From positions 124,001 through 188,000 of the forward strand of contig JAENRS010000014.1 of assembly GCA_018466975.1 (NCBI GenBank): a stretch of 64,000 bases of DNA. Direction: 5' to 3'. This document shows, piece by piece, positions 3,001-31,716 of the stretch (position 1 is its first letter; the number at the start of each line of letters is the position of its first letter). The position numbers were made by a program, and so were the translations under genes. A model generated the notes under the pieces. It was not told where the DNA came from and did no database searches. It saw nothing but the letters and a program-made list of their open reading frames with translations. The DNA comes from Sparassis latifolia (lineage: Eukaryota; Basidiomycota; Agaricomycetes; Polyporales; Sparassidaceae).

Positions 3001-3435
3001 TCGTCTTTCCAATGGGCGTAGTGGCCTCTTCATTGTATACCATAGCGTAGCGGCACTTATCGGTGAAGGTACCCATCTGTATCTTAGAGTTATGGTAGAG
3101 CTGAATCTCCCAAATGCAACGCGCGCCAACCTGAGATCGGTACGAGATCTAGGGCGACGACTCACTAGAGGTTCCGTACACGGCAAATCTACTAAATATT
3201 CCACAAGGTGCAATTTACCACCGTCTTGCGTCCCCCCAAATTGGCGAGACTGCTTTATCAGAATTCTGCAGGCCCGGTGAGGATACACACTTGGGGTCCG
3301 TTGATATACTTACTGTAAGCGAATCATAGTAAGTTCTCCCGTAGAGTTCTCTTAGACGGACCGAGGAAGATCGCGGTTGGATCTGCATAGAACTTGAAGA
3401 CAAATATCATTTGGAGCTCCATCATCAGCCAAAAA

Positions 3436-4739: not shown

Positions 4740-4799
4740 AAGACATGATGTTCAAGAGATACACCTCCCTTCGCGTTACATTGAATATAATACGGAGCA

Positions 4800-5726
4800 T
4801 TATGCTGTATTCTTCCTCACGAGACCGAACTTGTCGACTACGACTTGGACGACATCTTTCCACTCGGTCATGGCTCCTAAGCCTGCGCATGGTGAGCAAG
4901 ATTTCGGGAGTCCATACCATAGAACTCACCAATGTCACCGCAGGCGAGGGTCTTCCCGATTGGACCGACTACGTCGTATCCAATGACCTCACGTACGACG
5001 CGAATGTGCTCGCTTGTAAGAGGATGTTCATACATCAGGGTGTTCATGGCGGGAAAAACGTATGTCGGTGTGGTAGGTGCCAGAGCGCGCAGCAGTGAAG
5101 TCTAAACGGGCAGCAGGGTCGATTTTCTTGCCAGACGAGGAGATACAGAAAAGCCGTACCGCTAGATTATCGCATATACCACTCGCAATCTTTGCGAGTG
5201 TATTTGCTGAGCAAGGCGCAATAATGACGATGTCGGCCCACCTCCGCAACTCAATGTGCAGAATGGGGTCGCTGATGCGAAACGCTCCCTGCGGCAAATG
5301 TCACAGAGGCAATAAAACATGGTAACTATACGCACATCTTCTGTCCATTCATCTTCGTCTCGCCACACTCGAGCGCCTGCTCTCTCCACGGCGCCGACGT
5401 CGAAGAATGCAAGGGAAGGCTTGGTCGATACGACCTCGACTTTCACTGCCCTATACTGCGGGACGAGTATCGACCATCAACGTAAGGAATCAGCCAAGGT
5501 CAGCATCCAGACAATGCATGCAAGAGTAGTTAGCACCGACGGACAACAACTCAGACACTATCAGGGGGGCTTTGATGGATGCCACGCTGCCTGTGGTCAT
5601 TAGCAGAACATGTGTGCACCCCGGCCTCCGCTCATCCTCGGCAAGAAATGTCCTCTTCACCATGTCGCAACGTTGAGCAGCAAAACTGGCAAACTCTTCG
5701 GTAGATTCGACCCCCGCGATTGACAT
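4800..5726 (-). CDS. Phosphopantothenoylcysteine decarboxylase (PPCDC)
   Basis: Five exons on the minus strand: 5541-5726, 5336-5455, 5160-5288, 4930-5101 and 4800-4876, giving 227 aa. The Hal3/Coab/Dfp flavoprotein fold is evident: HVLLMTTGSVASIKAP near the N-terminus (flavin phosphate loop), KVEVVSTKPSLAFF, RRWADIVIIAPCSANTLAKI, then FPAMNTLMYEHP (the substrate-binding PxMN motif) and GPIGKTLACGDIGMGAMTE, whose ACGD cysteine is the catalytic residue of decarboxylases. The enzyme converts phosphopantothenoylcysteine to phosphopantetheine in coenzyme A synthesis. Catalytic Asn and Cys are both present, so this is probably an active enzyme rather than a Hal3-type regulator. The first donor (after codon TCC at 5541) is slightly non-consensus. 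The others are typical. Confidence 0.92.
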
Positions 5727-5860
5727 CCGTGACCAGTCACGTGGGCACCGTCACTGTTCGAGCCTCACCTCACTGTGAGCAACGGCGAGCTCACTATGTG
5801 GGGTCCAGGCGCGGGGGCGCCGTCACTGTTTTTCGCGACGCGACCCCTCACCTAGTCTAG

Positions 5861-5900
5861 GATCATTATCCGGGAGCCCACTGAGAAGTCCCCCGTGGGA
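5861..5900 (+). repeat. Left inverted repeat of copy A
   Basis: About 40 bp that matches the reverse complement of 7654-7692 apart from a short divergent stretch (ATCCGGGAGC against ACCGATGAC). The conserved core is CTGAGAAGTCCCCCGTGGGA. It lies 8 bp inside the left boundary, whereas the right partner lies about 66 bp inside the right boundary, so the repeats are subterminal and asymmetric. Confidence 0.85.
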
Positions 5901-6039
5901 GTTTTTGAGCTACGTGCCAGACAGCGGAAGGGACGGCTGCGTCATCGGCACTAAACTATAATTCCCAAAATGCGTCGGTGGCAGAGATGTCAGTCAACTC
6001 TGTATGTATGCTACGTAGCTGTAATCCACGCCGTTCTCT

Positions 6040-7063
6040 ATGTCCATCATACCTGCAGAAGGCTCTTCAGAATGGCTCGAGTCGCTGATCATTCAGAAGT
6101 GTCCCTCGGTTCGCGATTTCCAGCTACGCCATGGCATGGACCTCATCCGCGGCAAGGATCTGTTCCTCGTCATCGCGCCGGGCCAGGGAAGACGACGGTT
6201 ATGCATGCTCCGCTACTGGCTGCACAAGCCCAGATGAAGATAGGAATAGCTCTCATGATTGTGCCTACTAAATTGCTAGCATTGCAGCAGATACTGTTGT
6301 GCTGACAAGCACACCGACAGTAGTTTCATTCTGACCTTGAGTATAGGAAACTGTGGCCAATAGCCGCGGAATTCGTGCACTGGCTATCAACGAAGACACT
6401 ATGAGAGAAGCATACCACAACAATCGCGATCTTCTGGCCGAGCTTGTCAGCGAAGAGGACATTCGTCTCGCCATCATGAGCCCTCAAATGCTCCGGTCAA
6501 AATGCGTTCGTAGCCTGCTGTCGCAGCAAGCTGTCAAGAGTCTTGTCTGCTGGTTCTTCGTTGACGAAGCCCACCTCGTCGACGAACAGAGTGGCGAGTG
6601 GATCGAGATCTTCAAGTCCATCAAGACTATGCGCGCTATCTTGTCAGCTCGGACAGTTTGGGCAGCGTTCACTGGCACGGCGACTCCATCTCGGACTCTG
6701 GTTCTCGCTGAAAATCTGGGCTTCCAACCTGGGCACTATGTCAATGCTCGGTACTCGGTTGACTGCTCCAACATCAAATATATCCCGCGGTTCTTCGAGC
6801 ATGCTGTCTCTGGCACGGACTTCCTCGACATCAGCTTCCTGATACCCCTGGAGATGGCTTCCACCACCGATATCACAACAACTCTGATCTTTTGCCAGAC
6901 TATCGAGCTCGGCTACAAAATCATGTCTTTTCTCGATCGCCTTATCCCTGAAGCAGTACCTCATCGCAACAAGATCATTAAACTCTACAACTCATTCATG
7001 CCTGCGACGTACCGACAACGCTTCGTACAGGACCGTTTGAGCGGTGCTGAACTGCATATGTAG
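6040..7063 (+). pseudogene. RecQ-like DEAH helicase fragment inside copy A
   Basis: The reading frame begins MSIIPAEGSSEWLES and runs to LIRGKDLFLVIAPG. It then breaks at the Walker A motif, and GPGKTTVMHAPLLAAQ continues in another frame, so one base has been lost in the P-loop codons near 6178-6195. Further on are VANSRGIRALAINEDT, SEEDIRLAIMSPQ, the DEAH-type motif II WFFVDEAHLVDE, motif III AFTGTATPSR, and ITTTLIFCQTIELG. This order is that of a superfamily 2 RecQ-type helicase, as found in telomere-linked and transposon-borne fungal helicases. The frame stops at 7063 before the last helicase motifs, so the C-terminus is missing. It is almost certainly non-functional. Confidence 0.75.
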
Positions 7064-7653
7064 ACACTTGCGGGATGAGCAGATTCAAAGGCGCGCGCGA
7101 ACGCGTCGGCGAAACTGGACTAGATCGTAGCGGGGGGTAAAGTGATGCTGTGTAACCTCCGTGCATTTCCCGTCGTGCATAGCGAACATCTTGCAGGCCA
7201 TTGTGCACATGCGCGCGACCTCGTGAAATTTCCGAGTTGTCCTGAGTCCCTGACTCCGATTCCGCTAAGCTCAGTGACCTCGAGTGCATCCCGAACTCAC
7301 TATCATCCTGAGTATTTACACCAGGAGATAAATCTATACATAAGGCTTATGAGAATCATCCGACGTTAGTGTGGTGACATTCTCACGATGAATAAAATGA
7401 TACGGATAGCCACTGGCAGGCTGGGATATCTGCGGAAGACTGAAGGATCGGCTGAGTACCTGAGGGCCCATATGTACAGATCCGAATATGTCGCCATCAT
7501 CCTGGATGTCGTCAGTAGGTGGAACCGTCGCCATGAGAACTTTTTACAGCACGCGAAGCTTGTACACAGGTAAGACGCGCCTGTGGCTGCACGCGACTTG
7601 AGCGCTAAAGATTCGTGCGTCGAATTGCCGTCGGCATCGTTCAAAGTCCGGTT

Positions 7654-7692
7654 TCCCACGGGGGACTTCTCAGCGGGTCATCGGTAATGATC
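7654..7692 (+). repeat. Right inverted repeat of copy A
   Basis: Partner of 5861-5900 in inverted orientation, containing TCCCACGGGGGACTTCTCAG. The same pair appears in copy B (30801-30840 and 31660-31700 regions). Confidence 0.85.
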
Positions 7693-7829
7693 TCAGCCTC
7701 TATTACAAAGGAACGACTGTCTTCCTGCAGGTAACTAGAGGCTGTATCTATGAGCCTAGGGGCCCGTGGGGCGGCAATTTTGACAGCTCTCTTTCTACCA
7801 TTTGTACGCTTTGCTCAATGAAGGTGGAC

Positions 7830-7950
7830 ATCCATGGCCATAGGACCTCGAAAGCGCCTCATCCCGTCCGATCTGCGAAGTTAAGCGAGGTGCCGCCCAG
7901 TTAGTAGTACCACGGTGCCAGTGGGGAACCACGCGGGAGGGTGCTGTGGT
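7830..7950 (+). rRNA. 5S rRNA, degenerate copy
   Basis: The 5' two thirds follow fungal 5S rRNA closely (ATCCATGGCCATAGGACCTC, then CATCCCGTCCGATCTGCGAA and GCCGCCCAGTTAGTA), and the end GGGTGCTGTGGTTTTT includes a pol III T-run. Compared with the copy at 62061-62176 it has extra bases after GTTAGTA and around CGGTGCCAGTGGGG, and it lacks the AATCCT segment before GGTGCTGTGG. It is therefore probably a pseudogene or variant. It lies 62 bp past the GGGGCCCGT duplication at the right edge of copy A. See the finding on the split 5S-DUF3605 locus. Confidence 0.75.
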
Positions 7951-8151
7951 TTTTCAGTTTTTATCTTACCCCGCGTTTAGCTTCTCCCTATTCACAACAA
8001 ATGTCTTCGTACGGACAAGGTAATATATATCACGATGCTGAAGGCAGCATCACCTGGAATTAATACCCAATGTGTACACCGTATAGTAAATGATATTTAT
8101 GCCTCTTAGTAGTCATCTATCTTATTTGAACCTTCGCTTTTGATCTGTACT

Positions 8152-8185
<34 letters not shown>

Positions 8186-8959
8186 CCATGTTGTCGTCCC
8201 GGCCTCGATGAATGTGGAATTTTATCGTCGCCGATAGCTCATCCAACCCTCTATACCCGCCCCATGATGGGCATCCAGCGTACGGAGTTGGCGTTCCCGA
8301 CATTGGGCAAACGCAGCCAGACACACCCTGACCATCATCCACCAGTCCAATCGCACATCCATCCCCGCAGCACGCCAACCAGCTCATCGTCACTTCCTCT
8401 ACCACTCGGTCTGTCGCATTCATGAACCATCATCGTTTGTCCTAGGATGGACGACTGCCGGCAACCGGGTTGGATTATGTAAGGGGTTGGTACAGAGGTG
8501 GGTCCTTGGTTGATGCTTTCCCCTCCTTTCAAGGAGTCCTTTCTTCCGGCGTAACCCCCATCCACCTACATGGTCTTATCACGGTGATCCTGTACTCCAG
8601 GTAGCGGAGTGCTAGTCCGCCAACGTCCCGCTCATGCCATTGTAGATCCGCTGCTCCATACATACTTGGTTCGTCGAGGCCTGTCGTAGACATGTCCTAA
8701 GCCCACTGGGGCGAAGGCGGATATAGTATTGTAAACATTGTAAACAAGCTATATACATATTCATCTACTTTAATTTAATTACGAGTAACTGTGACGCCGG
8801 ATGGAGCAAGCTAACCAGCGGTTGCACCAAGGTCGTGCAAGTGTCTATTGAATGGGTAAGCTCCTAGAGATAGCTGCGTAGATTGAATTTCCCGGTCTGC
8901 TAGACCTGCATAGATCTGCATCAATGATCAGTTTCTATCAATCCATACGGACAGTACAC
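7951..8959. other. Intergenic, no gene recognised
   Basis: No gene was recognised in this kilobase. It holds the 5S terminator T-run, a (ACA)n microsatellite, a moderately GC-rich stretch (8230-8700) with no sustained conserved frame, and an AT-rich patch around 8730-8790 (ATTGTAAACA repeated twice). The last 100 bp are probably the 3' UTR of the minus-strand PrpD gene. Confidence 0.4.
8152..8187 (+). repeat. (ACA)12 microsatellite
   Basis: Twelve uninterrupted ACA trinucleotides. Not in a recognised coding frame. Confidence 0.95.
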
Positions 8960-10492
8960 TCACGACTTTTGCTCCGCAATAAAACCATCCACCCAATCGC
9001 ACACCCTCATCTCTTCCATCTCCTCCCGCATGCCCTGGTCCCAAACCGTAACAGGGTCGCGCAGCACGCCGCTCGTCAGCTCGATGAACTTCTCCCTCGT
9101 ACGCTCGGGTGTATCCTCACGATTCGGATGCCCAACGGGGCGCTCAACAAGCACCTCGTCGAGCACTGTCCCGTCGTCCATCGTCACCAGGAGCGCGCTC
9201 GCAGCCTTTTTCGCGCTCATATCATGATAATCCCTCGTCATCTGCGGGTCCTCCACCATCGTCATCTTCGCACGGAGCGCCTCGACGCGCGGATCGCTCG
9301 TCCATGGGGACGCGTCCGCATAGTCGCCCGCCGCGGGCCACCCGCCCTTGAGGAGCGTGACCGCAACCATATACCGCATGCAATGGTCGCGGTCCGCGGC
9401 ATTGTGCAGCGGCCCTGTCTTGTCGATGATCGTCATCGCCGCCGCCTGCGTGCGGATGCGGATATCGCGCACGCGCTCGAGGCGCCCGCGCAGCTGCGTG
9501 GAGAGCGACAGTGCAGCTTCGACCGCAGCGATCCCGTGGCCCTCCGCCACGGCAAGCTTGATGAAGAAGTGCTCGATGACGAGCGTGCGGAAGGGCACGG
9601 GAAGCTCGAACACGCGCCCGCCGAAGCTCGTCGCATAGAACCCCCAGGTGGGCGCCGTGAGCACGGTTGGGAAGCCTGGTTGGCCGGACTTGGTCATGAG
9701 GACGAGGTGTACGGCGCGCATGCACGCGTCCCCTGCCGCCCAACCTTTGCGCGGGCTGAAGGGCGGTAGTGAGGTCAGTGCAGGTAACTGGAGGATTGTG
9801 GATAGGCGTACCTGGTGTTGGGACCCTGCCTGTAGATCCGGAGCGGTTGTCCGTCAGCGAAGGCCTGGCTGATTGCGTCATTGGCCTGTGCACGCGTGAG
9901 GCCCATGAGCTTGGAGACCACCGCTGTCGCGGCGATCTTGACCAGAACAACGTGGTCAATTCCGACTTTGTTGAACGCGTTTTTGATCTGCACAGTCCAT
10001 CATAAAGACAGGACTTAAAGTACTGATACAGCATACCTGAAAAACACCTTGAATCTCATAGGCTTTGATAATAGCCTCAAGGACGTCCTTCATCTTGATA
10101 CTGTCGTCACCAGACTTACTGAACCAGTATGCGACCGGGAGAATGGCACCGATATTGTCGGACGGATGGCCCCACTCCGCACCGGGAAACGCGTCGCTGT
10201 GGTCGAGATAGCGGATGAGGGAACCGAGGTCGAACGCCGCCTTGAGTGGGTCAAGCACGTAAGGCGTCGCGGGGAGTGGGAAGCCATTAGGTACGACAGT
10301 CCCCTTGACGGTAGGCCCTATAAAGCTGCTGCAGACAGGGACGCTCTCAATGGCGCAGGCAAGAGAGTCGAGCAGCGCGACGTGAGCGCGCATCCATGCA
10401 TTTGTGGAGGATATTTGATAATTGAAGACGTAGTCAGAAATGGACTGAATAACAGCGTCAAATGGGGGACGAGTGTTGTCGGTTGATGCCAT
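8960..10492 (-). CDS. prpD: MmgE/PrpD family protein, probably 2-methylcitrate dehydratase
   Basis: Three exons on the minus strand (10037-10492, 9812-9987 and 8960-9755) give 475 aa, the normal PrpD length. The protein begins [15 protein letters not shown]. Family blocks are [12 protein letters not shown] near the N-terminus, [49 protein letters not shown], and across the second intron [21 protein letters not shown] (broken by the splice), then [15 protein letters not shown]. Matching of all blocks through both introns confirms the splicing. PrpD dehydrates 2-methylcitrate in the methylcitrate cycle that clears propionyl-CoA. In fungi this is mitochondrial, but I see no clear presequence with this start. 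An upstream in-frame ATG at 10579 would add 29 residues. A TATA element lies about 100 bp upstream. Confidence 0.9.
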
Positions 10493-10590
10493 TGGGATGA
10501 GGGGATAATTTAAGAGTGTGCAGCCTCTTTTGTTGCACGGCAAATTTTTGTAGGGAGATGGAGCCCACTTTGCAGTCAAACGATGGCACC

Positions 10591-10596
10591 TTTATA
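10591..10596 (-). promoter_or_regulatory. TATA box of prpD
   Basis: On the minus strand the sequence reads CCCTTATAAAGG, with TATAAA about 100 bp before the prpD ATG at 10492. The position suits a short 5' leader. Confidence 0.5.
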
Positions 10597-10599
10597 AGG

Positions 10600-11242
10600 G
10601 AGCTTCGGCGTCAGGGCTGGTCGCTTTGGTTGACTTGTGAAAGTGGAAGCAGGCGCGGGTGAAATCATATGAAACAGTCACCTGCCTTTATTTACAAGTC
10701 TGCGCTCTCAGAAACCACACTTCCATGTATTCCAAGCACGGTATGTCTGAGGGTGTTCTAAACGGAAGTAGACCGGTCAAATATGAGCCATCCAGGCGGA
10801 ACGTTGGTCGGCGCATATGATGCTTGGCACGTTAGAACCATATCACTCGCCTGCTTAAATCGAATCACGATACAGGACTGGAATGTGACAATGATCCGCG
10901 GGAAATCTGGGATATCACGGGCAAGATATCACAGGCCCGATAAAACTACAGAGGACTCAAAGGAGGAGGCCTGTCTCTCGTTGGCCACGCCACCGAGCGC
11001 GTCTACAGCATGACGTAAGCACAGATCGTCACGTCGATCGATAAAACTCCAATCTAGATCTGCAACGACGACAGTGGATGTGCATGCCAGCTGCACTCCC
11101 GCGCAAATGCGTGTAAAATTCCACTCGCACATGCGCCATACTAAGCGCTACAAAGGAGTAAAATACCTGTACAAGCCTAGCTGTATCACAGGGGTGTCCC
11201 TAAGGTGCAGGGGCAAAACTTCTGGCCCAAACTCAGCTCAGC
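10600..11242. other. Intergenic between prpD and the flavin reductase-like gene
   Basis: No coding exon with conserved motifs was found on either strand. Expected contents are the prpD promoter (left part) and the 3' UTR of the next minus-strand gene (right part). A short repeat AGATATCACGGGCAAGATATCAC lies around 10910-10932. Confidence 0.4.
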
Positions 11243-12419
11243 TCACTGCAGCTCACTGATCGCCGCGCCATCTACCGCCCACGTCCCGCGTGGGACGCGG
11301 AAAGGGTCGGACTGGCGCGAGTATGTGATGTCACCCAGACGTCCTACCGCATTCAGCTTCACCGGGTCCACCAGTCCGCGCTCGTTCAGCACGTCCTTCC
11401 GCACGTGGATATACTTCACCAGCCCGAGGACCAGTGTCGTCGTCGCCTTGCCTGTCTCGGGATGCACGATCTCGTGGGACTGGAACAGCTGCAGATCCTG
11501 CGTCGGCGAACATCAACCGTCTCGAGGAGTACTATTGGTCCGTACCTCGCACTCCATGCTGAACGCGCTCTCCTTAACGCGCGCCGCCTTTATCTTGATC
11601 TGTGGCACGCAGAAATAGCAGAGTAAAAGTTAGACTCCGACAGCACTCAAATGGCACTATACGCACGCTCGGCTCTTTCGTCAGCCCGCTTAGCGGCCAT
11701 TCGCTGACCTCCGTGGGCGCGTCCACCGCCGTGGCGTTCGCACCCGCGACAAACGCGTGGCTGATAATATTCACCGTGAACTCTTTCGTGCTCACTACAT
11801 TCCGCAGCGTGTCCTTGAAGCCGCGGGCGCCCGGCAGGTGCAACACCGCGAAAGACACGACGGGTGGATCGAATGTGACCTACAGCGCGCTCAGAGTTCA
11901 AAGTCGTATGGGAAATACTCCGTCAGTGCTCACCATATTGAACCAGCTGGTAGAACGCGTTGATGACGGCCGCATCAGTGCGAGAGTAGGTGTATAGATG
12001 GGGAACGCGACTTTACCTGAACGGCGCGAGGTTCTCCGTACCCGTCTCGGATATGGAGGAGACAAACGCTATCGGACGGGGATGATCCGCTAATCATGAG
12101 AGCATACTGCCACCCCCAGTCAGTGCGAGCTCCCTCCCAGCTTACATTAACCGGACGGACACTCACCAATCTCCTGCACCCGCCGACGCACGCATGACGC
12201 CGCGAGGAACCGCAAGGAACTGAACGGGCGACCAACTCACGAGGGGTCCGCAGTCGCGGCGTCGACGACCTGGAAACCGGCCTTCTCGCCCGCAAGCCAC
12301 TCGCGCCCTTCGAGCGTCGCGTCTACCTTCTGCCCAAACGTCCACCCCGGTACGGGCGGCGTGGTGAACTTGGCTCGCGCGTCGTGGGTAAATGGGGGGA
12401 GGTCATCGATGGAGCCCAT
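11243..12419 (-). CDS. Flavin reductase-like FMN-binding protein (frame broken in this assembly)
   Basis: Seven exons on the minus strand: 12241-12419, a 7-nt microexon 12167-12173, 12017-12106, a 13-nt exon 11934-11946, 11667-11879, 11546-11599 and 11243-11497. The start is MGSIDDLPPFTHDARAKF. Then come YALMISG and PRPIAFVSSISETGTENLAPF, the hallmark of the flavin reductase-like / flavoredoxin split barrel, followed by VTFDPPVVSFAVLHLPG, KEFTVNIISHAFVAGANATA, ESAFSMECE and LVLGLVKYIHV. Members bind FMN and reduce or transfer flavin. The substrate is unknown. Between YALMISG and PRPIAF (about 12076-12084) the frame shifts, so the sequence as given does not translate through. I treat this as a likely small indel. 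The tiny exons are supported because they alone connect DPS-RL-YALMISG and APF-SWFNM-VTFDPP. Confidence 0.75.
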
Positions 12420-13232
12420 GTTCGAGCGGGAGTGTGGGGATGAGCTAGAAAGGCGAGCTAGTGAGGTAGGGTAGCTTAGTGTTACGGCTGCGTAGCGATA
12501 GCAGGCGGGCCTTAATTAGCGGGTGCGCATGTGGTTGAATCCTCGGGTCCAGCGCTCACTCAGCATCCTGGTCGTTTACCCAGGCTGATGGGTACCGCGA
12601 TGCCACGACGCGGACAACGGTGAGAAAGCGGTGAGAACAGATCGGATACCACACCCTGCACACATCTTTGATCCGAGCCTGCTCCTGCGTACGATGTATG
12701 AGCTTATCGGAGTGTTTGTCCAAAAGTCGCAGACGAGGGGCACGAGATTTGTTACCAGCAGAGATGAGAGCGCATCGTAACGCGAGGTAAGGCATACTAC
12801 ACTTGGTGACACAGGATTACTGTAGTGTATGCACGACCGCTGGAATGTGCCCGATGCGGTGCATGAACACAGTGCGGCATACTGTGCAGCCGGTGAGAGG
12901 AGGTATCGTGGAGTGCAGGGGTCGACTCATCACGATCTAGTGTTTGAAACTCGAAGCTGCAATTGAAGTATAGCGTCTACTAAAGCTGTATTGGTGTACG
13001 CCGGGTTTAGGAGATCGGCTCGGAAATCATGCAAGTAAAATTTGGAGTGTTATTACACTAGCCATTCAGTACACTGCAACTCTACAGGCGCCTCAGTTGG
13101 CAATGCGGAGAGATAGGTAGTGTTCGTTTCGTGATAATACACAAACAACCAGCAAGAACGTGGCGCGCCTCCGAGCTCAGGCTCAGCAACACGGGAAGAC
13201 AGAGAGAACTTCCAGTCCAGCGAATATACAGA
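12420..13232. other. Intergenic, no gene recognised
   Basis: About 0.8 kb between the flavin reductase-like gene and cofilin, both on the minus strand. No conserved coding exon or RNA gene was recognised. It should contain the promoter of the former and the 3' UTR of the latter. Confidence 0.4.
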
Positions 13233-13844
13233 TTAGTTTCCTCGGGACACTTTGTCCAGTACTGCGGGAAAGGAGTGCAGTCAGCGTTGCGCCATGGCAG
13301 ATGTCAGGAAGGTGGGTGAGGTTAGGGGAATACGTACCGCTTTCGTACGCTACCTCGCTGTAATCCGTGCCCTGGATCTCGTGCGCGACGCCGACGAGGG
13401 AACGTCGGAGACCGTCCTTCGACGACGCGAACATCATCTTCGCCTTGATCTTTGCATCATCTGGGGACCTGCACGCACAATTCGTCAACACAACACATCT
13501 GACGTCGAACAAGAAGCGACGGGCACGCACCAGGAGAAAAAGGTGATCTTGTTCCGTATCCCGCCCTCCTTCTCGTATTCGAAGTCGTAGATAGCCCAGC
13601 GGCACTCGCCCTCGGGGAGGTCCGCGAGGAAGTCCTCGTAGCTCTTGGATGGAGACGTCTTCTCCACGACGACCTCCGTGTGTTCGTCGTTGATCTTGAA
13701 AATGATGTACTTGCTCTTTTTGCCAAGCTTGAGCTCCTGGAACGCTTCAAGACATTCCGAGTTCACGCCGATTCCGGAGGCCTGTCGAGAGCACACGATC
13801 AGCATCGCCGCAACGTAGCTGCGCGAAAAAAGTAGACGCACCAT
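13233..13844 (-). CDS. cof1: Cofilin (ADF/cofilin actin-severing protein)
   Basis: Four exons on the minus strand: 13842-13844 (only the start codon), 13531-13781, 13338-13468 and 13233-13261, giving 137 aa, the usual cofilin size. The protein reads [20 protein letters not shown] at the N-terminus, where the serine after Met-Ala is the usual phosphoregulated position. It continues [80 protein letters not shown] and ends [21 protein letters not shown]. The long actin-binding helix ([10 protein letters not shown]) is intact. Cofilin binds and severs ADP-actin filaments. The ATG-only first exon is supported because the alternative read-through start lacks the conserved N-terminal serine. It is followed on the same strand by alpha-actinin, another actin regulator. 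Confidence 0.95.
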
Positions 13845-14125
13845 GGCTGCAAGCGTACGTAGATGATTGTGAGGTGGAGGTAGATATAGAGATTGGACGG
13901 AGAGCTGGTGGTGAAGCTTTGAAGAGGCTATCTAATAGCAGATAAATCGCGATGGTGGCTGTGACAACGGCGATTGCCACTCTGATTGGACGAGGCCCAG
14001 TGGCTGCGGGCGTACTTACTCGCGCAGGCGCAGCTCCTCTGCGATCTGTTTCTCAATCTATTTGCCTGTTCAAACGTATCCGAGTCCATAAAATACACAA
14101 GAATTTCATGATCTGCTCGGGCACT

Positions 14126-16966: not shown

Positions 16967-17434
16967 TGCTACACTGTGCAGTCTGAAGCAGAGAGAAAAA
17001 GCTAGCAGAGGGTGAGGCTTAAGTGAGTAGCGAGTGCACCGCTGAGAGCCGGTTGAAGGGGAGCAACTTTCCAACTCCGAAAATGCACATTTCTCATTGA
17101 GAAATGTCACTGTCACTGTCGACAGGCGTCTGCTCATCACTTCGGAGTCCTCTTGAATATTTGGTTTCCATCCTACTATTATTTCACCAGTATAATTGGC
17201 GAGTATGGGGCGCATGAGAAATTCAACCAATGCGCGGCGCAATTGACGATGAGTTGTCCCTCACGAACGCGTCTTGTCACGTCACGCTAAAAGCATTGTA
17301 ACAATTGCCAGCACGTGGGAAAGCCTGCATTTGTAACCTCAGACCCGAGACGCGTCCCAAGTAAGTAAGTACCTTGCACTCTCTCCTCAACACGACCGTC
17401 TCCCCCTTCCTCCTCAACACGACCTACAACAACA
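16967..17434. promoter_or_regulatory. Divergent promoter region, alpha-actinin / SSRP1
   Basis: 468 bp separate the alpha-actinin start (minus) from the SSRP1 start (plus). The right end is pyrimidine-rich with repeated CTCCTCAACACGACC (17388-17425), typical of fungal leaders just before an ATG. No clear TATA was seen. Confidence 0.5.
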
Positions 17435-19737: not shown

Positions 19738-20029
19738 CTGCGTTCTGCGTGTTCGATTTTTCCCCGCCGGACTATCTACATAGCCGTCCCTCACACTCTC
19801 CGCTGTTCTTCTGTTGTATAAAATTCACTGCTAATATTGTTCACATCTACATCTCTCATACATATGTACAGACCGCGCTACAGATAGACTGAGATACAAC
19901 GTCAACGAACGTGCGAGATAGGCAGTGTAGGCAATAGGCTGTGCATGTGCACACGAACAACACAAGAACGACAAGTTTAAATCTAGGTATATACGCGAGA
20001 GAGGTATAGCTAGCGCCAAATAGCCGCGG

Positions 20030-23000: not shown

Positions 23001-24090
23001 GAGATAGTGCCAGAATGCGGGAAAACAGCATCAGAGACAGTACCAGAGAGTGCGTACGCCGCATCAGAGGGGGGAGAGACAGTACCAGAGAGTGCGTACG
23101 CCGCATCAGAGGGGAGAGAGACAGTACCAGAGAGCGCGTAGACCGCATCTCTGGACGGGGAGACAGAGGACGAGGAGACACTACCAGAGGGGAGGAACAC
23201 CACATCTCTACAAGGGGAAACAGCGCCCGATGGACCGGGCTGGGACCGGACAGTAGCAAAAGGCACGTTCGCCGCCACCGACTCACAAGACCGTGTACTC
23301 GCGACGCTGCTCGTCTCAGCCGCGTCCCCCTCAGGCCCAACCTCCAGCTGCACATCGACCATCATCCGCGAATCCCGAATGACACTCAGCTCCGTCGGCC
23401 GCCGCATATGCCGCCGCCGCTTCGTCTCCAGCACGGGCGCAGGCTCAGGCTCCGCCCACGGCTCCGCGGGGAGCTGCGCGCCGACGCGTCCGCGGGGGAC
23501 CTACGTCCGCTCAATCAACACCTCAGCACACGACCATGCGCGGGTGCACGTACCTTGGGGACCACGACGTGGGACTGCGCGAGCGTGTTGAGGGACGGGA
23601 GGGACGGGCGCGGGCGGAACGCGGGGCGGGTGTGCGCCGACTGGGCTTGGCCGGAGGACTTGGGGCGGACGAGCTCGGCCGGGCGGGGGAGGACCGGCGA
23701 CGCGAGCGGCGAGCGCAGGGGCGACACCGGCGCGGCGTCCGAGAAATCGAGCGGGGGCAGCCGCGGGCTGCGCTCCGACGGCGCGGGCGACAGGTTCGCG
23801 AACGGGTCCGAGTCTAGCAGGTCGGGCGGCGGCGAGTGGCGGCGCGCCGTCCCGAGATCGAGCAGCGGGAGGTCGGGGAGGGACGACACTGAGCCGAAGC
23901 GCGACGAGGAGGAGGAGGGGGAGGGGGACGCGGGTGAGAGCGTCGCCGCCGAGCTCGCGCGGGAGCGTGTGCGCGTGCGCGCGTGTGTGCGAGGGGACGG
24001 GGTCGCGGGCCTCGCGGGGGAGTCTGGCGCGCTCGCGAGCTGCACCACCGTCGCGAAGAGCGACTGCACCGAGCGCCGTTTCTTCACCAT
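20030..24090 (-). CDS. Large Ras-association plus PH domain protein
   Basis: Six exons on the minus strand: 23554-24090, 20893-23500, 20708-20826, 20525-20647, 20261-20467 and 20030-20206, giving 1256 aa with all phases consistent. The first ~900 residues are Ser/Pro/Arg-rich low-complexity sequence starting MVKKRRSVQSLFATVVQLAS, with a Gly/Asn-rich patch near the middle. The C-terminal third is folded. An RA-like segment spans RIFVGNMQRFCLVEIGAATT to WNTDRTVNFLVIKR across an intron, and a PH domain follows (CSGYVQHEYKRGKWQKRWLE, LWLSKRDTGKDQTFLCSL, YVFAIKSTDSLSFFENTADY, EGRKWVEKILVAR). RA-PH tandems are found in Ras/Rap effectors of the Grb7/RIAM/lamellipodin kind. I infer a Ras-type GTPase effector acting at the membrane. 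The exact fungal orthologue is not recognised. The gene is convergent with SSRP1 (292 bp apart). Confidence 0.8.
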
Positions 24091-24731
24091 CCTGCAGCGT
24101 GCACTAGTTCTGCGGGGGATCCGCTGCCTTTTACGCCGAGCACGCTCGGGGAATGGACGACGCGCTAGGGGCGAGCAGCAGCAGCGATAGCGCTCCTGGG
24201 AAAGAGATGGCAATGCGTCAGATCTGCCTGCCCCGTCCGTTCCATCTCTGTGCCTCAAGAATGAAAATCCTAGGACGTCATGTGACGTCCCTCCCCCATC
24301 TGCCATCCGGAAGCAGAATTCCACCACCCCGAAACGCGCGATCTTTCTGCCTGGACCCGCGCATACGAGGGCAGAGAATGACTCATGAGCGGGTCGCATC
24401 ACGACGTCGTGCCCGCAACAATCGGCGTCTCAACGAACTTCCCCAGTGAGAATGAGCCCGACTGGGGAACATACTCGCACCCGGTGGGTCGCTGCAGCAT
24501 CGAAGGCGGGTCAGATGGGGCGACGCCTGCGAACGCCGGCACTCAACGCGCGAGAAGCGCGCAGAGACGTAATGGGGAAAAACGACGAGAAGGTGGTACG
24601 GACAGGTGGAGAGGACGGTACCCCGCCCTCGCTCGTCCTCTGTCTCAGCGGGGCAGTTCGCGTGGCAGAACGGTCGCAGACGCACTGTCCATGGGGCACA
24701 CCACCCCGAGCTTCCTCGGCGAGGATAGCAA

Positions 24732-25067
24732 TCATCGCGACCCTCGCAGGATATTCCCCACGGCCATGATGACATGACGCAAGCGGGGACGTAAAGGAGG
24801 AAAGTCAGCACTCACGCGCGAAGGACCATACGGGGAGCCCGCTGACAGAGACGGCGCGCTGCTGAAAGCACGCTTCTGGCCGGGACTTGCGACTGAGAGC
24901 GTTTTGAGGACGGATTGGCCGGAGAGAGAAGCGGAGAGGCCGAGGAGGAGAATATGGAGATGGAATGGGGAGGAGCGCTGAAGATCTAGAACGGACGACT
25001 GCAGTCCGCGGTCGAAATGTGCGTCCGCGCGCAGAGACGCTGCTGCTGCTGCGGCTGCCAGAGCCAT
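24732..25067 (-). CDS. Possible small gene or 5' exon, unknown
   Basis: A frame opening MALAAAAAAASLRADAHFDR on the minus strand starts about 100 bp after a TATATAAGG element (25168-25176). It contains a hydrophobic stretch (HLHILLLGLSASL) and meets a strong GTGAGT donor near 24816. It could be a separate small gene or an upstream exon in the leader of the RA-PH gene that starts at 24090. No family is recognised and the frame is GC-rich enough to be accidental. Confidence 0.25.
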   Translation of the reverse strand: MALAAAAAAASLRADAHFDRGLQSSVLDLQRSSPFHLHILLLGLSASLSGQSVLKTLSVASPGQKRAFSSAPSLSAGSPYGPSRVSADFPPLRPRLRHVIMAVGNILRGSR

Positions 25068-25167
25068 GCAAGCGAGGCGGATGCGGGTGATTGAAGGGGA
25101 TATCGAGGGGATCAGAGGACCTGGCACCGTGGTCGTCGCCTGCCAACGCGGACGCTGGCTGTGCGCT

Positions 25168-25176
25168 CCTTATATA
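25168..25176 (-). promoter_or_regulatory. Possible TATA box (minus strand)
   Basis: The minus strand reads GCTATATAAGGAGC. It is placed to drive a minus-strand transcript starting near 25.14 kb, toward the small frame at 25067 and the RA-PH gene. Confidence 0.35.
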
Positions 25177-26393
25177 GCAGGCACCAGTCTCACACACCCA
25201 CCCTTCTCTGCCACGGTCAGAGCTGCGGTGCTACTACAGCGACCGCGCTGCTCTGTCATCGTCTCCCGCGCGGCCAGCGGCGGTGTGCTCGCTGTCGCGC
25301 CCAGCGTCGCTCGCTGTCGGGGCCCCGGCCAACCAATGGGAGCGCGGCAGATGACGTCGACATGACCCCAAAATGCATATCCAATAGCCGCCTCCGTGCT
25401 CTTCCAGCAGCCCAACCTCCGATCGTCTCCCTCTCCTTTTCTGCCAGCTCATCCCCGATAACGCGAGCGTCCTCTGCTGAAGCGCCCACCGCCTCCGTTC
25501 TCGCTGGGCCGTGTCCTGCGATCCTGTCTTCTCGGACGCCCTCCATCTGCACCGCTCCCTCACGCCTCCTCGCCCATGTCCCTGTCACCCGCGAAGCTCA
25601 CAACGCGCTCCTGCTTCCTCGAGCGCGCGGGGCCCCTTACAAGCGTTCCGCATACACGGACGCTACGTTTTCTGCATACAGGCCCAGGGTCCATGGGTAC
25701 GTTTCGACAGATAACGCGCGATGTCCTCCGCGCCCCGCGTCGTCTCACCTTCCGATAACGCGCAACGTGAGTGAACAAATATATATTGTGCACCAACTAC
25801 TGCAGAGCCAGGATACTACGGCACGCCCATACCTCTCCCCGCGGCGCGGCTGCCCCGTCCCACACCGCAAAGCCACCCACGCGATCGTCCGTCAACGTCA
25901 TCATCGTGGGTACTACACCCCGCCTTCAGTGTTGCGCCTCAGCGGACGCGAGCACGTCTCTCGACGTCCGCTCACTGTCGAGCACCGTCCAACGTTCCAG
26001 CCGCGGCACCAGCTCGTGGCACCCAGTCAAAGGGTCGAGCATGCAGACTCCAGAAGACCGCGAGTCAGCACCCGCACCGGCGATCTCAGCAGCCACAGGG
26101 CGTACTTCACCACAGACAACCTACGTCCCTGCGCTCGACGCATCCCCCGTCGTCCAGCTCCAACCCAACGCGCACAACCTCAATAACGAACACGGCACCA
26201 ACGTCTGCATATAGCAATTTCCACTCAGAATGGGGTATATCTGCATTTTCTTTGCGCCTTCCGCTCCCCTTTAAAGTGCCCGCTTCGTACAATCCCACGT
26301 ATGTCTATCCGACGAAAGAGGCAGGCTGGTCGCTCCAGGCTCAGGTAGGTAGGTATCCAGGGCTTTCCTTTGTTATCCCTACTTCCTCACTCC
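25177..26393. other. Gene-poor stretch, no supported gene
   Basis: The stretch has long open frames on the plus strand (for example 25161-26186), but their composition is Arg/Ser/Pro-rich with no conserved motif, as expected from GC-rich non-coding DNA. No RNA gene was seen. Confidence 0.4.
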
Positions 26394-26600
26394 GGCTTAG
26401 GCTGCAGCACTCGTACGAACTTGTACCAGTCATGTCAGACGACACGTCGCACATCGACCTCAATGCTGCATATGATATCCTCCCTGAACACCCCGGCTTC
26501 GGCTGCAGCGCACTTTCGTACGCTCATGAAGTTGCAGTACCAGTCATATCGGCCGACACGTCGCAGGTCCACTATCGCATATGATATCCTCCATGAACTT
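26394..26600 (+). repeat. Imperfect tandem duplication, two ~105-bp units
   Basis: Unit 1 is about 26394-26494 and unit 2 about 26495-26600. Both run GGCTT-GGCTGCAGC, CGTACG, TACCAGTCAT, GACACGTCGCA and CATATGATATCCTCC in the same order and spacing with scattered substitutions. This is an old tandem duplication in non-coding DNA. Confidence 0.85.
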
Positions 26601-27013
26601 TGCCATCGTCCTTTGATACTCAGAGTCATCGTCTCAAAGGCCCAGCGCGTGGACTGGTGCCAGGCAAGGGCGGAGATCTTCCGACGAGCGGAAGGGTTCG
26701 GGATCAGCGCCCCCTTGTGCATAGAACAAGCTCATGCGAGGGAGTTTACGGATGGAAGACGTGGAGGATATCGCAGGCGAAGTCGACGATCTGCATGAAG
26801 TGCCTGCCGCGTGTTCCTGCGCAGTTTCCTCGGGATAGGGTGCGCGTTCTCGTGGTTGTGACGTGATCGAAAGTGGCGGCTGAGTTAACTTCGTATTTTT
26901 GTAATGTGTGGTTTTTTGATTTTATTACTATAGCGTGCTGTGGACGACGCATCTAGTCCTCCACCTCTTGGCCGTGAGTTTTCCTTGGTCGTCAGTTAGA
27001 CGGGGGCTAATAC

Positions 27014-27900
27014 TTGGCGTCAGCGCACGTCCGACGAACCGAGACCGTCGCTGCACTGTATGATGCGCTCAACCGCTATCACTTCATTCGGGCATATTCC
27101 TTCTTTATTATGAGAGCGGTTGACTCCAAAGGTACTCAGGTTCGGGGTACGCTGGCCAGCGGCAAGACCACTCTGGCTACACTGCTGTTCGGTCACATTC
27201 GTGCTGAGGAGCCGAACACGGTCGTGTGCTGGATTGGCTCGTGGCCCGAGTCTATCCGCTACGAGTATAACGGCTACCGAGGGTGGCTGCTGCAACGCAG
27301 GGGCTTCGTCGAAGATGGTGTTGTGATCATTGGCGAAGTGCAGAACACCTACTGGGACTCCGGGTTCTGGAACTCATTTCTGAAAGACATGGGCCTTGGA
27401 TGCGCGTGATCCTGTTTGCGAGCTGTGGTGACCCTCGATATTCGGACGCTCGGACGAACGTGCTCGCATCCCCCCCCCGGTTCGAAGAGTCACTTTGCAG
27501 CGCGCGAAGGTCGCCTTCAGCCGGTGGGGGCTCTTCCTCACACCCGGGGAGTACGAGGATCTTGTGAACACGCTCTGTGAATCTCACTGCCGGCCACGTC
27601 GGGGCTCTCCCCGATATGTTTACCACTGCCCGTGCTTCACGTGTACGTATCCACATCTTGTCCAGGGAAGTTACCAAGCTAAGATGCGTTGCGGTCGTAC
27701 CGCAGTCTCAGATCCTCTGGACGACTCTTCACGACGTCTATCGTTGGAGAATTTCAGCGCACGAGAGCTTCTCGTCTCGTAGAAACATCGCTCCAACAAG
27801 GTTGACCACGACCTGAAGAGCTGCAGGATGTGACGACCGCCCGCGTATTTCGCACTGTCCTGACGACGGGAGTTAACACCGAAGCGCGCTCCCATGGAAG
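27014..27900 (+). pseudogene. Broken P-loop NTPase-like gene of a basidiomycete repeat family
   Basis: The frame has ALYDALNRYHFIRAYS, then RGTLASGKTTLATLLFGHIR (a Walker A, xxxxGKTT-like), VVCWIGSWPESIRYEYNGYR, WLLQRRGFVEDGVVIIGEVQ, where a Walker B acid would be expected in VVIIxE, and YWDSGFWNSFLKDMGLG. It then stops and continues in another frame with MRVILFASCGDPRY and later TPGEYEDLV and TGHVGALPDM. This looks like a multi-copy fungal P-loop family of unknown role (often resembling Crinkler or NLR-like ATPases), and the frame changes show it is decayed. The family name is uncertain. Confidence 0.5.
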
Positions 27901-28228
27901 AAGATCAGGATGCTCTCTGATGGTGCACTTCAGACGCGGCTGGCTGCACGCCGATGCCCCACTGATCGGTCATGCATTGCGTAGAAGAAGTGTCCCGGTG
28001 CATGGACTCGATCATGCACACTGTTGCTAAGAATGCGCTCCTCTGCCTCGAAGCAAACTTGTGCAATCTTCTCGTACGGTTGGAGCCCATGTGGACCTAA
28101 CACAGCTAGACTGCCTTCGCCGGCAAGCCGGCAAGTGTAGCTATTCGAAATATTAATGTACTTTCGTTAGCACTTTACCGAACTACGCTCCAGCCGTATA
28201 AATATAATGATGTAGGGAGATCGAACAA

Positions 28229-28332
28229 GCCTGCCTAGCTCAATCGGATAGAGCGTCAGACTTTTAAAGCGCGGGGGTCGAACCCGCCAAAATTCCCATC
28301 TGAAGGCTGCGGGTTCGACCCCCGCGGTGGGC
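28229..28332 (+). tRNA. tRNA-Lys (anticodon TTT) with a 31-nt intron
   Basis: Acceptor strands GCCTGCC (28229) and GGTGGGC (ending 28332) pair over 7 bp with two wobbles. The D-arm region TAGCTCAATCGGATAGAGC carries the A box. The anticodon stem TCAGA pairs with TCTGA around loop CTTTTAA, giving anticodon TTT. The T-arm GCGGGTTCGACCCCCGC holds the B box GGTTCGACC. Position 37 is followed by an intron at 28267-28297. The intron contains a perfect 17-nt reverse complement of the T-arm (see findings). A T-rich run (TTTGTTTTTG) follows about 11 bp downstream and can serve as the pol III terminator. Confidence 0.85.
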
Positions 28333-30127
28333 TAGTGATTTGTTTTTGTCTCTTGGAACTATCTCACTCATCATTTTTTGCTGTTGTCAACCTAGCTGTT
28401 TGCCAGTTTTGCAGCTCAACATTTTTTTTTGGCTTCAAATTTATTTGTCTGCAAGGGCCCTATGGTAGACATTGTACTGACATAGCTAACTGGTGGAGGG
28501 AGCTGGTGAGGGGGTTGAAGTGAACATGATGCTTATGCATAGCTTGGGCTGGAGAGGCTGGAAGGGGAGAGAAGTCACTAGTAGTGTGTGTAGTATAATA
28601 GGTATTGAAAAGGAGGGTGTGAAGTTGTACATGACCAGACCTTTGCGGCACTGTAATTATTTTCTTTTTATCCAGAGTCATTTCTTATTGTTATGACTCA
28701 GACTCCTATTATCACATTTTCTATTGTTATTTCTATTGAAGGCACTTTTCTATTATTTAGATTTTCTCACCTTCTTTAGTATATAAACCCTGGCAGTCCA
28801 CTTGGACTTGCAGAGGAATTCTGTTGTGTTAGGGCTGGTGGTTTCCCAATCAGGAAACATATATTAGTCAGCACATAGGTATGTCGGAGAACATACTGGA
28901 ATCTCCTAGAATTACTGTGTAGTATAAATATATGGCCCCAACCGCATGAGCTCCTCATGCGCTTGTGACCCATGGCCTAACAGCGTGAGTAGTAGTGATC
29001 AACCTCACAATATGTTGTCCTAAAAGTATAGGACATTCTTCTCACCCCAGTAGTCACTAGTCGGTATATACTCAAGTTCATACTTACCTGAATACAGTGT
29101 TATTCAGGTATAGCATCCTAGGCATCAAGCAAGTCATAACTCAGTCATCTGTCAGTCGGTCATCTGTTTACTTGGCCACTTATTACTCGGTCATACTCTC
29201 TGTCTTAATACAAGACAGTCTTTCCATCTTACTCACACACACACTCTTACACTTGATTACTACCAGGTAACCAAGCAATTACTACATTGAATACACTAAG
29301 GAATATTTCCCAACTTTGTTCAAGTCCAGTGACCTCAGGAGGATTTTGTTTTGGGTTGTGTTTTATCCAAGACACCATTCTCATCTGTCAATGCACTTCA
29401 CAAGTTTTGGCCACTGACACTGGGAAAGCATCAACCCTTGACCTCCCTTGTGTGGGTCTGTCACCTTGTACATGCCAGTTATCGCCTGCATGCACTCAGT
29501 CTGGAAGAACCTGTGTCAGTATGGCATGGACGGTGAGTGTGCATGCACACATCAAGAAGCATATCATGAGGGGATGTGTGGTTAGAGCTAGAGCAGGAGG
29601 CACGAGTGATGGCTGCACATCTGCAACACTGTGCAGCTGTGATTCGCCTGCAAATTCACACACTGAAACTCGTGATTTACCCTCAAACTGTTTGCCTGGG
29701 ATTTGTAGGGCTTAAGTGTGCACAAGCATAGGGGATGAGTGCTCCTGCTCGAGCTCACATATGTCAGGACTGTGTTTGCTGTGGTCATAGATGTACTATC
29801 TAAACATGCTTAGAATTAATGCTAGTACATGTATTCCAATAGCTGCATACCCTCGACAGTCAATTACTTTCCTAAAAAGAGCCCCACCACAGTTCCCATT
29901 GCTGTAAACCATGTACATATGGGCATGCATCTGGATATGCATTTTATAAGCATTTGCCACCAGTGCCTAAGCAGTGCCAAAGTCTCAACATTAATCCTGG
30001 GCTAATGTCAAAGACTGTGACTGCCCTTACAATGCCGTGGATGCAACCTCTTTACAGCCTAGAAACTACTGTACTCCAATGACCTTAGGTTCACAGGGTG
30101 TGACCTGTGACATGCCAAATTGCATTT
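28333..30127. other. AT-rich block of foreign-looking composition
   Basis: Immediately after the tRNA-Lys 3' end the base composition drops to clearly AT-rich for 1.8 kb, then returns abruptly to GC-rich at about 30128 (AACGGCCGCC). No supported gene is present. Within it are two TATA-like sites (AGTATATAAACCC near 28780 and AGTATAAATATATGG near 28921), pyrimidine/CA repeats near 29230-29260, a perfect palindrome TGTGCATGCACA near 29537, and a cluster of perfect hairpins. It could be the remains of a retroelement (LTR-like) inserted next to the tRNA gene. I could not find matching LTRs or a coding domain. Confidence 0.45.
28841..29218. repeat. Cluster of five short perfect hairpins
   Basis: Perfect inverted repeats are GTTTCC/GGAAAC (28841-28858), CGCATGAG/CTCATGCG with a 3-nt loop (28943-28961), TGTCCTA/TAGGACA (29016-29035), TACCTGAATA/TATTCAGGTA (29085-29110) and CTGTCTT/AAGACAG (29200-29218). 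They are spaced about 70-110 bp apart. Confidence 0.8.
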
Positions 30128-30749
30128 TTTAACGGCCGCCATACCTGGCGCTCTTCGGGCTCGTCGCTGTGAGGCGGGGTGTCGCGTCCTCGTCACGTGC
30201 TCCCAATTTTGTCCAGAGATGGTCTGGGAGAATTAGCACACACTCGGCCTGAGACTCGGCGGGCGACGCGTGGGCTGTACACGCGACGGCTACATCGAAA
30301 CGACCACGCGGAAGGTTGCTCGCGTGTTGTACGCTGGGCTCACGATGCGGGGAGACGGTACGCGATGAGAGGTGTACACGGGAAGAGACGTGACGTAGCA
30401 GGAGCGGCGGCTCTAGCGTACATGTCGCATACTCGCGACTCTGTCCAGAAAGTCTAGGAGAACACACACACGCCTCGCGCAGTATGCCAGACCGCGACAC
30501 AGTAGGTGTCGCTCCGTGAGAAACATTGCGAGGCCCGCGCTTCGAGGGCGCTCTCGAGAATGGGTGCAGGGATCAAATTGCTCCGCGAGAAACAGTGAGC
30601 CCCGTCGTGTGCAGGCATCGCTCCGATAGTGCAGCTGGCTGTCGCTCACAGTGAGATGAGGCAGGAGATCGTGACACTCGAGATGGTGAGGCGGGAGATG
30701 GTCACAGTGAGGTGAGGCGGGAGATTGTGAGGCTCGAGATGGTGAGGGG
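30128..30749. other. Non-coding flank of copy B with degenerate short repeats
   Basis: No gene recognised. The part next to copy B (30650-30749) repeats GAGATGGTGAGG / CGGGAGAT / GTGAGGTGAGG several times. Related words (GAGCCTCACCTCACTGTGAGC) occur left of copy A at about 5758-5785, supporting a former junction between the two flanks. Confidence 0.5.
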
Positions 30750-31707
30750 TAGGCTCATAGATACAGCCTCTAGTTACCTGCAGGAAGACAGTCGTTCCTT
30801 TGTAATAGAGGCTGAGATCATTACCGATGACCCGCTGAGAAGTCCCCCGTGGGAAACCGGACTTTGAACGATGCCGACGGCAATTCGACGCACGAATCTT
30901 TAGCGCTCAAGTCGCGTGCAGCCACAGGCGCGTCTTACCTGTGTACAAGCTTCACGTGCTGTAAAAAGTTCTCATGGCGACGGTGCTTCGTCAATGAAGA
31001 ACCAGCAGACAAGACTCTTGACAGCTTGCTGCGACAGCAGGCTACGAACGCGTTTTGACCGGAGCGTTTGAGGGCTCATGATGGCGAGACGAATGTCCTC
31101 TCTGCTGACAAGCTCGGCCAGAAGATCGCGATTGTTGTGGTATGCTTCTCTCATAGTGTCTTCGTTGATAGCCAGTGCACGAATTCCGCGGCTATTGGCC
31201 ACAGTTTCCTATACTCAAGGTCAGAATGAAACTACTGTCGGTGTGCTTGTCAGCACGACAGTACCTGCTGCAATGCTAGCAATTTAGTAGGCACAATCAT
31301 GAGAGCTATTCCTATCTTCATCTGGGCTTGTGCAGCCAGTAGCGGAGCATGCATAACTGTCGTCTTCCCTGGCCCGGCGCGATGACGAGGAACAGATCCT
31401 TGCCGCGGATGAGGTCCATGCCATGGCGTAGCTGGAAATCGCGAACCGAGGGACACTTCTGAATGATCAGCGACTCGAGCCATTCTGAAGAGCTTTCTGC
31501 AGGTATGATGGACATAGAGAACGGTGTGGATTACAGCTACGTAGCATACATACAGAGTTGACGCGACTGACATCTCTGCCACCGACGCGTTTTGGGAATT
31601 ATAGTTTAGTGCCGATGACGCAGCCGTCCCTTCCGCTGTCTGGCACGTAGCTCAAAAACTCCCACGGGGGACTTCTCAGTGGGTTCCCGGATAATGATCC
31701 TAGACTA
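30750..31707 (-). mobile_element. TIR-flanked helicase repeat, copy B (internally deleted)
   Basis: It is the inverse-orientation copy of 5853-7758, nearly identical at both ends but only 958 bp. The segment equivalent to 6571-7523 of copy A is missing, with the junction near 30984 inside the DEAH motif. It keeps both inverted repeats and the helicase N-terminal part (MSIIPAESSSEWLES, GPGKTTVMHAPLL, VANSRGIRALAINEDT), including the same Walker A frame break. It is flanked by GGTGAGGGG (30741-30749) and ACGGGCCCC (31708-31716). Read on its own strand these equal the left flank of A and the right flank of A respectively. Confidence 0.85.
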
Positions 31708-31716
31708 ACGGGCCCC

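What the first reader, a model, noticed from the sequence alone, without database searches (positions are those of the whole stretch)
5844..31716. Exchanged 9-bp duplications reveal a ~23-kb inversion between two inverted helicase repeats
Seen directly: repeat A (plus, 5853-7758) has CCCCTCACC on its left and GGGGCCCGT on its right. Repeat B (minus, 30750-31707), read on its own strand, has GGGGCCCGT on its left and CCCCTCACC on its right. Neither copy has matching flanks of its own, yet each 9-mer is perfectly duplicated across the pair. Established: a transposon makes a direct target duplication on insertion, and crossover between inverted copies flips the interval and swaps outer flanks. 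Inference: each element originally had its own 9-bp duplication, then recombination inverted about 7.76-30.74 kb, including prpD, the flavin reductase-like gene, cofilin, alpha-actinin, pob3, the RA-PH gene and the tRNA-Lys. Both crossover products survive, which is rarely readable from one sequence.
Basis: partly seen in the sequence, partly recalled or inferred. Interest (0 to 1): 0.92.

Follow-up and report, generated by a model that had tools for sequence, protein, structure and literature searches.

The report
Transposon pair flipped 23-kb chromosome segment
In one of the two versions of this stretch held in a mushroom genome assembly (very probably a cauliflower mushroom, Sparassis), two copies of a jumping element recombined and turned 23,000 bases of chromosome around; the assembly's other version still shows the original order and both sites before the elements landed.

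Summary
Elements A (5853-7758, +) and B (30750-31707, -) carry exchanged 9-bp flanks (X=CCCCTCACC, Y=GGGGCCCGT). Of 14 other copies in the same assembly with both ends found, 13 have a perfect 9-bp duplication of their own and one has 8/9.

Scaffold C9 of the same assembly carries a second version of the region with 7.76-30.75 kb in the opposite orientation, no element at either junction, and a single X and a single Y there. C9 is therefore the pre-insertion, pre-inversion order.

A and B are reciprocal mosaics of two subfamilies: alleles swapped at two diagnostic sites up to column 214, both of one parent's type at the next two, unswapped from column 451. This fits a left-arm crossover with a short conversion tract and argues against aberrant transposition.

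It is a textbook transposon-mediated inversion (precedent: Drosophila Galileo), well documented because both arrangements sit in one assembly. No reads were available to exclude misassembly of C13 formally. The divergence profile does not tell the two orders apart. The element's superfamily is unassigned; it looks non-autonomous.

The parts
5844..5852 (+). target site X (CCCCTCACC), outer copy, left of element A
   Evidence: single copy in the empty site at C9:2419331-2419339
5853..7758 (+). element A: 1906-bp full-length copy, mosaic (left ~210 bp short-type, rest full-type)
6062..6090 (+). interval in A where the short-type left part changes to the full-type rest (inferred crossover interval, between columns 214 and 244)
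7759..7767 (+). target site Y (GGGGCCCGT), inner copy, right of element A
7759..30749 (.). inverted segment relative to C9
9605..10447 (-). PrpD-family gene (exon matches) inside the inversion
   Evidence: C13:133605-134447; opposite strand on C9
13339..13754 (-). cofilin gene (exon matches) inside the inversion
   Evidence: C13:137339-137754; opposite strand on C9
16520..16843 (-). CH-domain match (alpha-actinin-like) inside the inversion
   Evidence: score at the cut-off, two stops inside the match
17861..18526 (+). pob3/SSRP1 exon inside the inversion
28228..28334 (+). tRNA-Lys(TTT) with 31-nt intron inside the inversion
   Evidence: ARAGORN with introns; missed by the default scan
30741..30749 (-). 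target site X, inner copy, own-strand right of element B
30750..31707 (-). element B: 958-bp short-subfamily copy, mosaic (left part full-type, rest short-type)
31265..31493 (-). outer bounds of the putative conversion tract in B: full-type alleles from about 31464 to at least 31370, short-type again at 31264
31708..31716 (-). target site Y, outer copy, own-strand left of element B
   Evidence: single copy in the empty site at C9:2451613-2451621

Best explanation
A short copy of a 9-bp-duplicating mobile element inserted at X and a full-length copy inserted in the opposite orientation at Y (X and Y are 32 kb apart on C9; the turned segment is 23 kb on C13). Homologous (ectopic) recombination between the left arms of the two inverted copies, with a conversion tract of roughly 100-240 bp, then inverted the interval. 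The crossover exchanged the duplications and left both elements as reciprocal mosaics. C9 keeps the original, element-free order. Shown: exchanged duplications, empty sites, opposite orientation, mosaicism. Inferred: a single crossover, its homologous-recombination mechanism, and that C9 and C13 are two nuclear haplotypes.
For: Exchanged 9-mers. 13 of 14 other copies with perfect own 9-bp duplications, the 14th 8/9. C9 has the interval reversed with a single X and a single Y at the junctions and no element match in the 70 kb compared, and the predicted empty sites at 110/111 and 111/111. Diagnostic columns 183 and 214: A short-type, B full-type; 286 and 345: both full-type; 451, 613 and the internal deletion: A full-type, B short-type. 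Among the 13 copies aligned, A shares a 5-bp deletion (columns 141-145) only with short copy L010, and B shares column 24 A only with full copy L005. The Y site on C9 is flanked on both sides by sequence close to C13, so the Y insertion, and the inversion after it, are probably young.
Against: No reads could be mapped. Several copies carry single-base deletions, which I take for imperfect polishing of long reads, so alleles inside the repeats could partly be consensus errors. Columns 119 and 357 do not fit the simple mosaic; both are CpG-type transitions, so recurrence is plausible. The labels rest on few sites (183, 214, 286, 345, 451, 613); the interrupted full-length copy L008 has short-type alleles at five of these six, so 'full-type' means six other full-length copies, not all; site 286 is also T in two of those six. 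At 1825 both A and B have the G of the short type, which L005 has too. The C9/C13 divergence profile does not favour either order: counted as switches between high and low divergence, both orders need the same number, because a low patch at 5.0-5.85 kb adjoins the low 7.76-20 kb part in the C13 order.
Confidence: 0.93

Rival explanations
1. C13 is misassembled: the haplotype really has X-short-X and Y-full-Y uninverted, and the assembler flipped the interval between two near-identical inverted copies.
For: Would give the same exchanged flanks and a simple mosaic. C13 is exactly 220,000 bases and its part near 17.5 kb matches C15, so its history in the assembly is not clean.
Against: No N in the window. 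The elements are at most 1.9 kb, short for long reads (technology inferred from contiguity and indel errors, not shown). A plain flip predicts a reciprocal mosaic, not the tract at 286 and 345 where both copies carry the same parental type, though polishing could produce that.
Confidence: 0.05
2. Aberrant transposition: ends of two elements (hybrid-element insertion), or intramolecular replicative transposition, made the inversion and the exchanged duplications together.
For: These routes can give the same exchanged target duplications (hybrid insertion: Galileo paper PMC2775673, passages seen; the replicative case is recalled).
Against: They predict two identical copies (for hybrid insertion so stated in PMC2775673). 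A and B differ by a 948-bp internal deletion that B shares with five dispersed copies, and are reciprocal mosaics.
Confidence: 0.02
3. The C13 order is ancestral and C9 is derived by loss of both elements and re-inversion.
For: Nothing specific; the divergence profile does not exclude it.
Against: C9 has single, unduplicated X and Y in unbroken context at both junctions; precise loss at two sites plus re-inversion is far less economical.
Confidence: 0.01

Closest known systems
Drosophila buzzatii inversion 2z3, generated by Galileo (PMC2775673; passages seen)
   Same: Two transposon copies in opposite orientation at the breakpoints, exchanged target duplications, chimeric copies, single target copies in the non-inverted chromosome, ectopic recombination as the mechanism
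   Different: Fly, 7-bp duplications of a P-superfamily element, breakpoint insertions of 2.9 and 4.8 kb; here a basidiomycete, 9-bp duplications of an unassigned element, a 23-kb segment, and both arrangements inside one assembly
Maize inversions by alternative transposition (PMC8225341; listing and start of abstract only)
   Same: Inversion made by transposon ends
   Different: Transposase-driven (Ac/Ds, recalled); no mosaic of two different copies expected (inference)
Transposon-related structural variants in Marasmius oreades monokaryotic protoclones (PMC9674265; passages seen)
   Same: Mushroom; [quoted passage not shown]
   Different: That inversion concerns one hAT copy of a nearby pair with the middle deleted; the passages seen mention no exchanged target duplications

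Membership tests
transposon-mediated inversion by ectopic recombination | two inverted homologous copies at the breakpoints | tested here: met
transposon-mediated inversion by ectopic recombination | target duplications exchanged between the copies | tested here: met
transposon-mediated inversion by ectopic recombination | single target copies and opposite orientation in a non-inverted chromosome | tested here: met
transposon-mediated inversion by ectopic recombination | both copies chimeric | tested here: met
   few diagnostic sites, both copies alike at 286 and 345
aberrant (hybrid-element) transposition | the two copies are identical | tested here: not met
   1906 vs 958 bp, different subfamilies
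Mutator-like element (MULE; its features recalled) | target duplication of about 9 bp | tested here: met
Mutator-like element (MULE; its features recalled) | MULE transposase and long terminal inverted repeats | tested here: inconclusive
   No transposase match in the one long ORF of A. The ends read TAG...CTA; a 47-bp inverted repeat of 81% identity starts at base 2 of the left end but 59 bp in from the right end. No transposase family was searched for in the genome

The most novel reading that the evidence does not exclude
The inversion is young and already suppresses exchange between the two nuclear haplotypes: inside it differences have begun to build up (0-5 per kb at 8-20 kb), while the right flank from 33 to 47.6 kb shows none. 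A live, datable inversion polymorphism in a mushroom, with its ancestral allele in the same assembly. Against it: the left flank is more divergent than the inside (31-58 per kb in most of 0-5 kb), and no test was made. On re-checking this I lowered its odds from 0.2 to 0.12.
Probability: 0.12. Interest if true: 0.6.

Novelty: new member of a known kind. Interest (0 to 1): 0.45.

Why it matters
It is a complete case of transposon-driven inversion in a basidiomycete: both sites before insertion, both crossover products, the exchange interval with a conversion tract, and the ancestral arrangement can be read from one assembly. It shows that dispersed 1-2 kb elements recombine in this fungus, and it offers a natural test of recombination suppression between haplotypes.

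Tried and rejected
Considered and rejected: chance sharing of the 9-mers (X lies beside CCTCACC-rich sequence, but the C9 empty site settles it); B as a local truncation of A (five other copies share the same deletion); aberrant transposition (copies not identical). I first took the divergence profile as support for the C9 order and dropped that on recounting: both orders need equally many switches. A 9942-base query of the interior listed 41 matches, none at its own place or at its C9 counterpart, so shorter queries were used. Papers: no title listed names an inversion in Sparassis; the inversion searches (12 of 17 papers listed) showed no fungal case with exchanged duplications in titles or starts of abstracts, which is not proof of absence; no listed paper held the phrase '9-bp target site duplication' (12 of 375 listed); the search for 41.41 Mb found nothing. 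Classification of the element's ORF by Pfam, NCBIfam and PDB sequences gave only weak helicase matches. Two of the three stretches fetched to look for an autonomous partner proved to hold 60-bp copies; the third (L062) holds two pieces and was not followed.
Full report
OBSERVATION. Element A occupies 5853-7758 (+, 1906 bp) and element B 30750-31707 (-, 958 bp). They match over 143, 578 and 235 bp at 98-100%. A is flanked by CCCCTCACC (X) and GGGGCCCGT (Y); B on its own strand by Y and X. The chance of both exchanges for random 9-mers of this window is 3.5e-11.

THE FAMILY. The window is C13:124001-188000 of a 41.4-Mb, 22-contig assembly. A search with A gave 70 matches, with 40 of 92 candidates scored, so the list is a lower bound. 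Other copies with both ends found number 14 (L002-L007, the interrupted L008/L009, L010, L011, L012, L014, L015, L019, L030); 13 have a perfect 9-bp duplication and L012 has 8 of 9. L006 and L007 share one site, so these are 13 sites. L017 and L018, whose matches stop short of the element's 3' end, were not counted (2 of 9 at the match ends); for L016 and L029 no matching 5' end was found in the stretch held. Five dispersed copies (L010, L011, L012, L014, L015) share B's internal deletion, so B belongs to a short subfamily and is not a local truncation.

THE SECOND ARRANGEMENT. A query from inside the block (12000-14500) found a near-identical copy on the C9 minus strand, and the right flank found the C9 plus strand. 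With C9:2400001-2470000, window 7759-30750 runs from C9 2451621 down to 2419330, in pieces of 94.7-99.0% identity (short pieces down to 89%) and with about 9 kb extra on C9 around window 23-26 kb, while 3109-5852 and 31708 onwards run on the plus strand. C9 has one X at 2419331-2419339 and one Y at 2451613-2451621 at the two junctions; no part of A or B beyond the X and Y bases matched this 70 kb at E 1e-10. Joining the outer flank of one element to the inner flank of the other predicts the empty sites: 111 of 111 bases for Y, 110 of 111 for X. C9 also has two insertions near the right junction that C13 lacks: 6800 bp, and 5671 bp with two identical 294-bp terminal repeats. Opposite strands for cofilin and PrpD on the two contigs agree.

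MOSAIC. On alignment of 13 copies, A and B included, and again with the left part of L008, diagnostic columns read: 183 and 214, A short-type and B full-type; 286 and 345, both full-type; 451, 613 and the internal deletion, A full-type and B short-type. In one search, A's 5-bp deletion at 141-145 is shared only with short copy L010; B's A at columns 24 and 357 is shared only with full copy L005; A, B and L005 share the 6-bp gap at 255-260. So the exchange lay at window 6062-6090 in A, and B has a tract of the full-type parent ending before 31264. It follows, by inference, that the ancestral left site held a short copy and the right site an L005-like full copy. Columns 119 and 357 do not fit (both CpG-type transitions); at 1825 both A and B have the short-type base, which L005 has as well. 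L008 is a full-length, interrupted copy with short-type alleles at five of the six left-arm sites, so the short subfamily probably came from such a copy.

AGE. Mismatches to C9 per kb: 58, 31, 5, 40 and 49 in the first five kb, 3.5 in 5.0-5.85 kb, 4.1 in 7.76-8 kb, 0-5 from 8 to 20 kb, 10-34 from 20 to 31 kb, 3.4 in 31.7-32 kb, 1.0 in 32-33 kb, 0 from 33 to 47.6 kb. The profile does not tell which order is older: both need five switches between high and low. It bears on age in another way. On C9 the Y site lies between two low-divergence stretches, and the Y insertion is on C13 only; so the insertion, and the inversion after it, came after the two versions parted there, unless later exchange made them alike. 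No absolute date is offered. More mismatches at 7.8-20 kb than at 33-47.6 kb would fit reduced exchange inside the inversion, but no test was made, and the left flank is more divergent than the inside.

ASSEMBLY. There is no N in the window. C9 has a 100-N gap at 2494353-2494452, just where its match to the window stops at 62428; C18 base 1 matches window 62429 onwards, and its match to C13 ends at C18 base 20000, where C13 goes on with a stretch found at C9:2748902. C13 is exactly 220,000 bases. Round sizes suggest fragments cut during scaffolding (inference). C13 near 17.5 kb matches C15 over 4.9 kb at 97.4%, so C13 may not be allelic to C9 along its whole length; the junctions used here lie in the C9-like part. 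That C9 and C13 are the two nuclei of a dikaryon is inference.

ORGANISM. The ORF of A matches a Sparassis crispa protein (97%, all of the query) and a S. latifolia protein (96% over 55%) among 11 hits. A chromosome-scale long-read and Hi-C assembly of S. latifolia is cited as Yang et al. 2021 in a reference list; that paper is not held, and that it is this assembly is a guess. Polyporales.

MECHANISM AND PRECEDENT. The Galileo paper sets out the test used here: exchanged duplications with chimeric copies mean ectopic recombination; a similar outcome with identical copies means hybrid-element insertion (passages). A and B meet the first. The finding is a new member of that known kind.

Noticed in passing
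window 7699-7758; L060 6833-6892; L061 282-341; L064, L065: The last 60 bp of the element occurs alone elsewhere: two solo copies have perfect 9-bp duplications of their own. By eye, L065 has a 9-bp and L064 an 8-bp repeat around a unit with a few extra 3' bases; L063 and L066 showed none. An ultra-short mobile unit; 40 places listed (68 candidates), many of them ends of longer copies, 13 of 17 chosen sites not fetched.
   Followed up: partly
C9:2452156-2458955 and 2459341-2465011 (window 32251 and 32630): Two insertions on C9 absent from C13 within a nearly identical tract; the second has identical 294-bp terminal repeats, so probably a very young LTR-type element.
   Followed up: partly
window 62429-64000; C18:1-20000; C9:2494353-2494452: C13 continues into sequence found on contig C18 exactly where C9 has a 100-N gap; the C18 match ends at its base 20000 and C13 is 220,000 bases, as if cut at round sizes in scaffolding.
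   Followed up: partly
window 20000-25700; C9:2424547-2436274: GC-rich stretch (up to 74% GC) with a 7-kb difference and a second partial copy on C9.
   Followed up: no
L007 1501-3410 (C13:17532-19441): Copy with single-base deletions and T-to-C changes crowded in its first ~380 bp, unlike its same-site counterpart L006 on C15; unpolished sequence or real decay.
   Followed up: no
window 28228-28334: tRNA-Lys with a 31-nt intron, missed by the bacterial-mode scan.
   Followed up: yes
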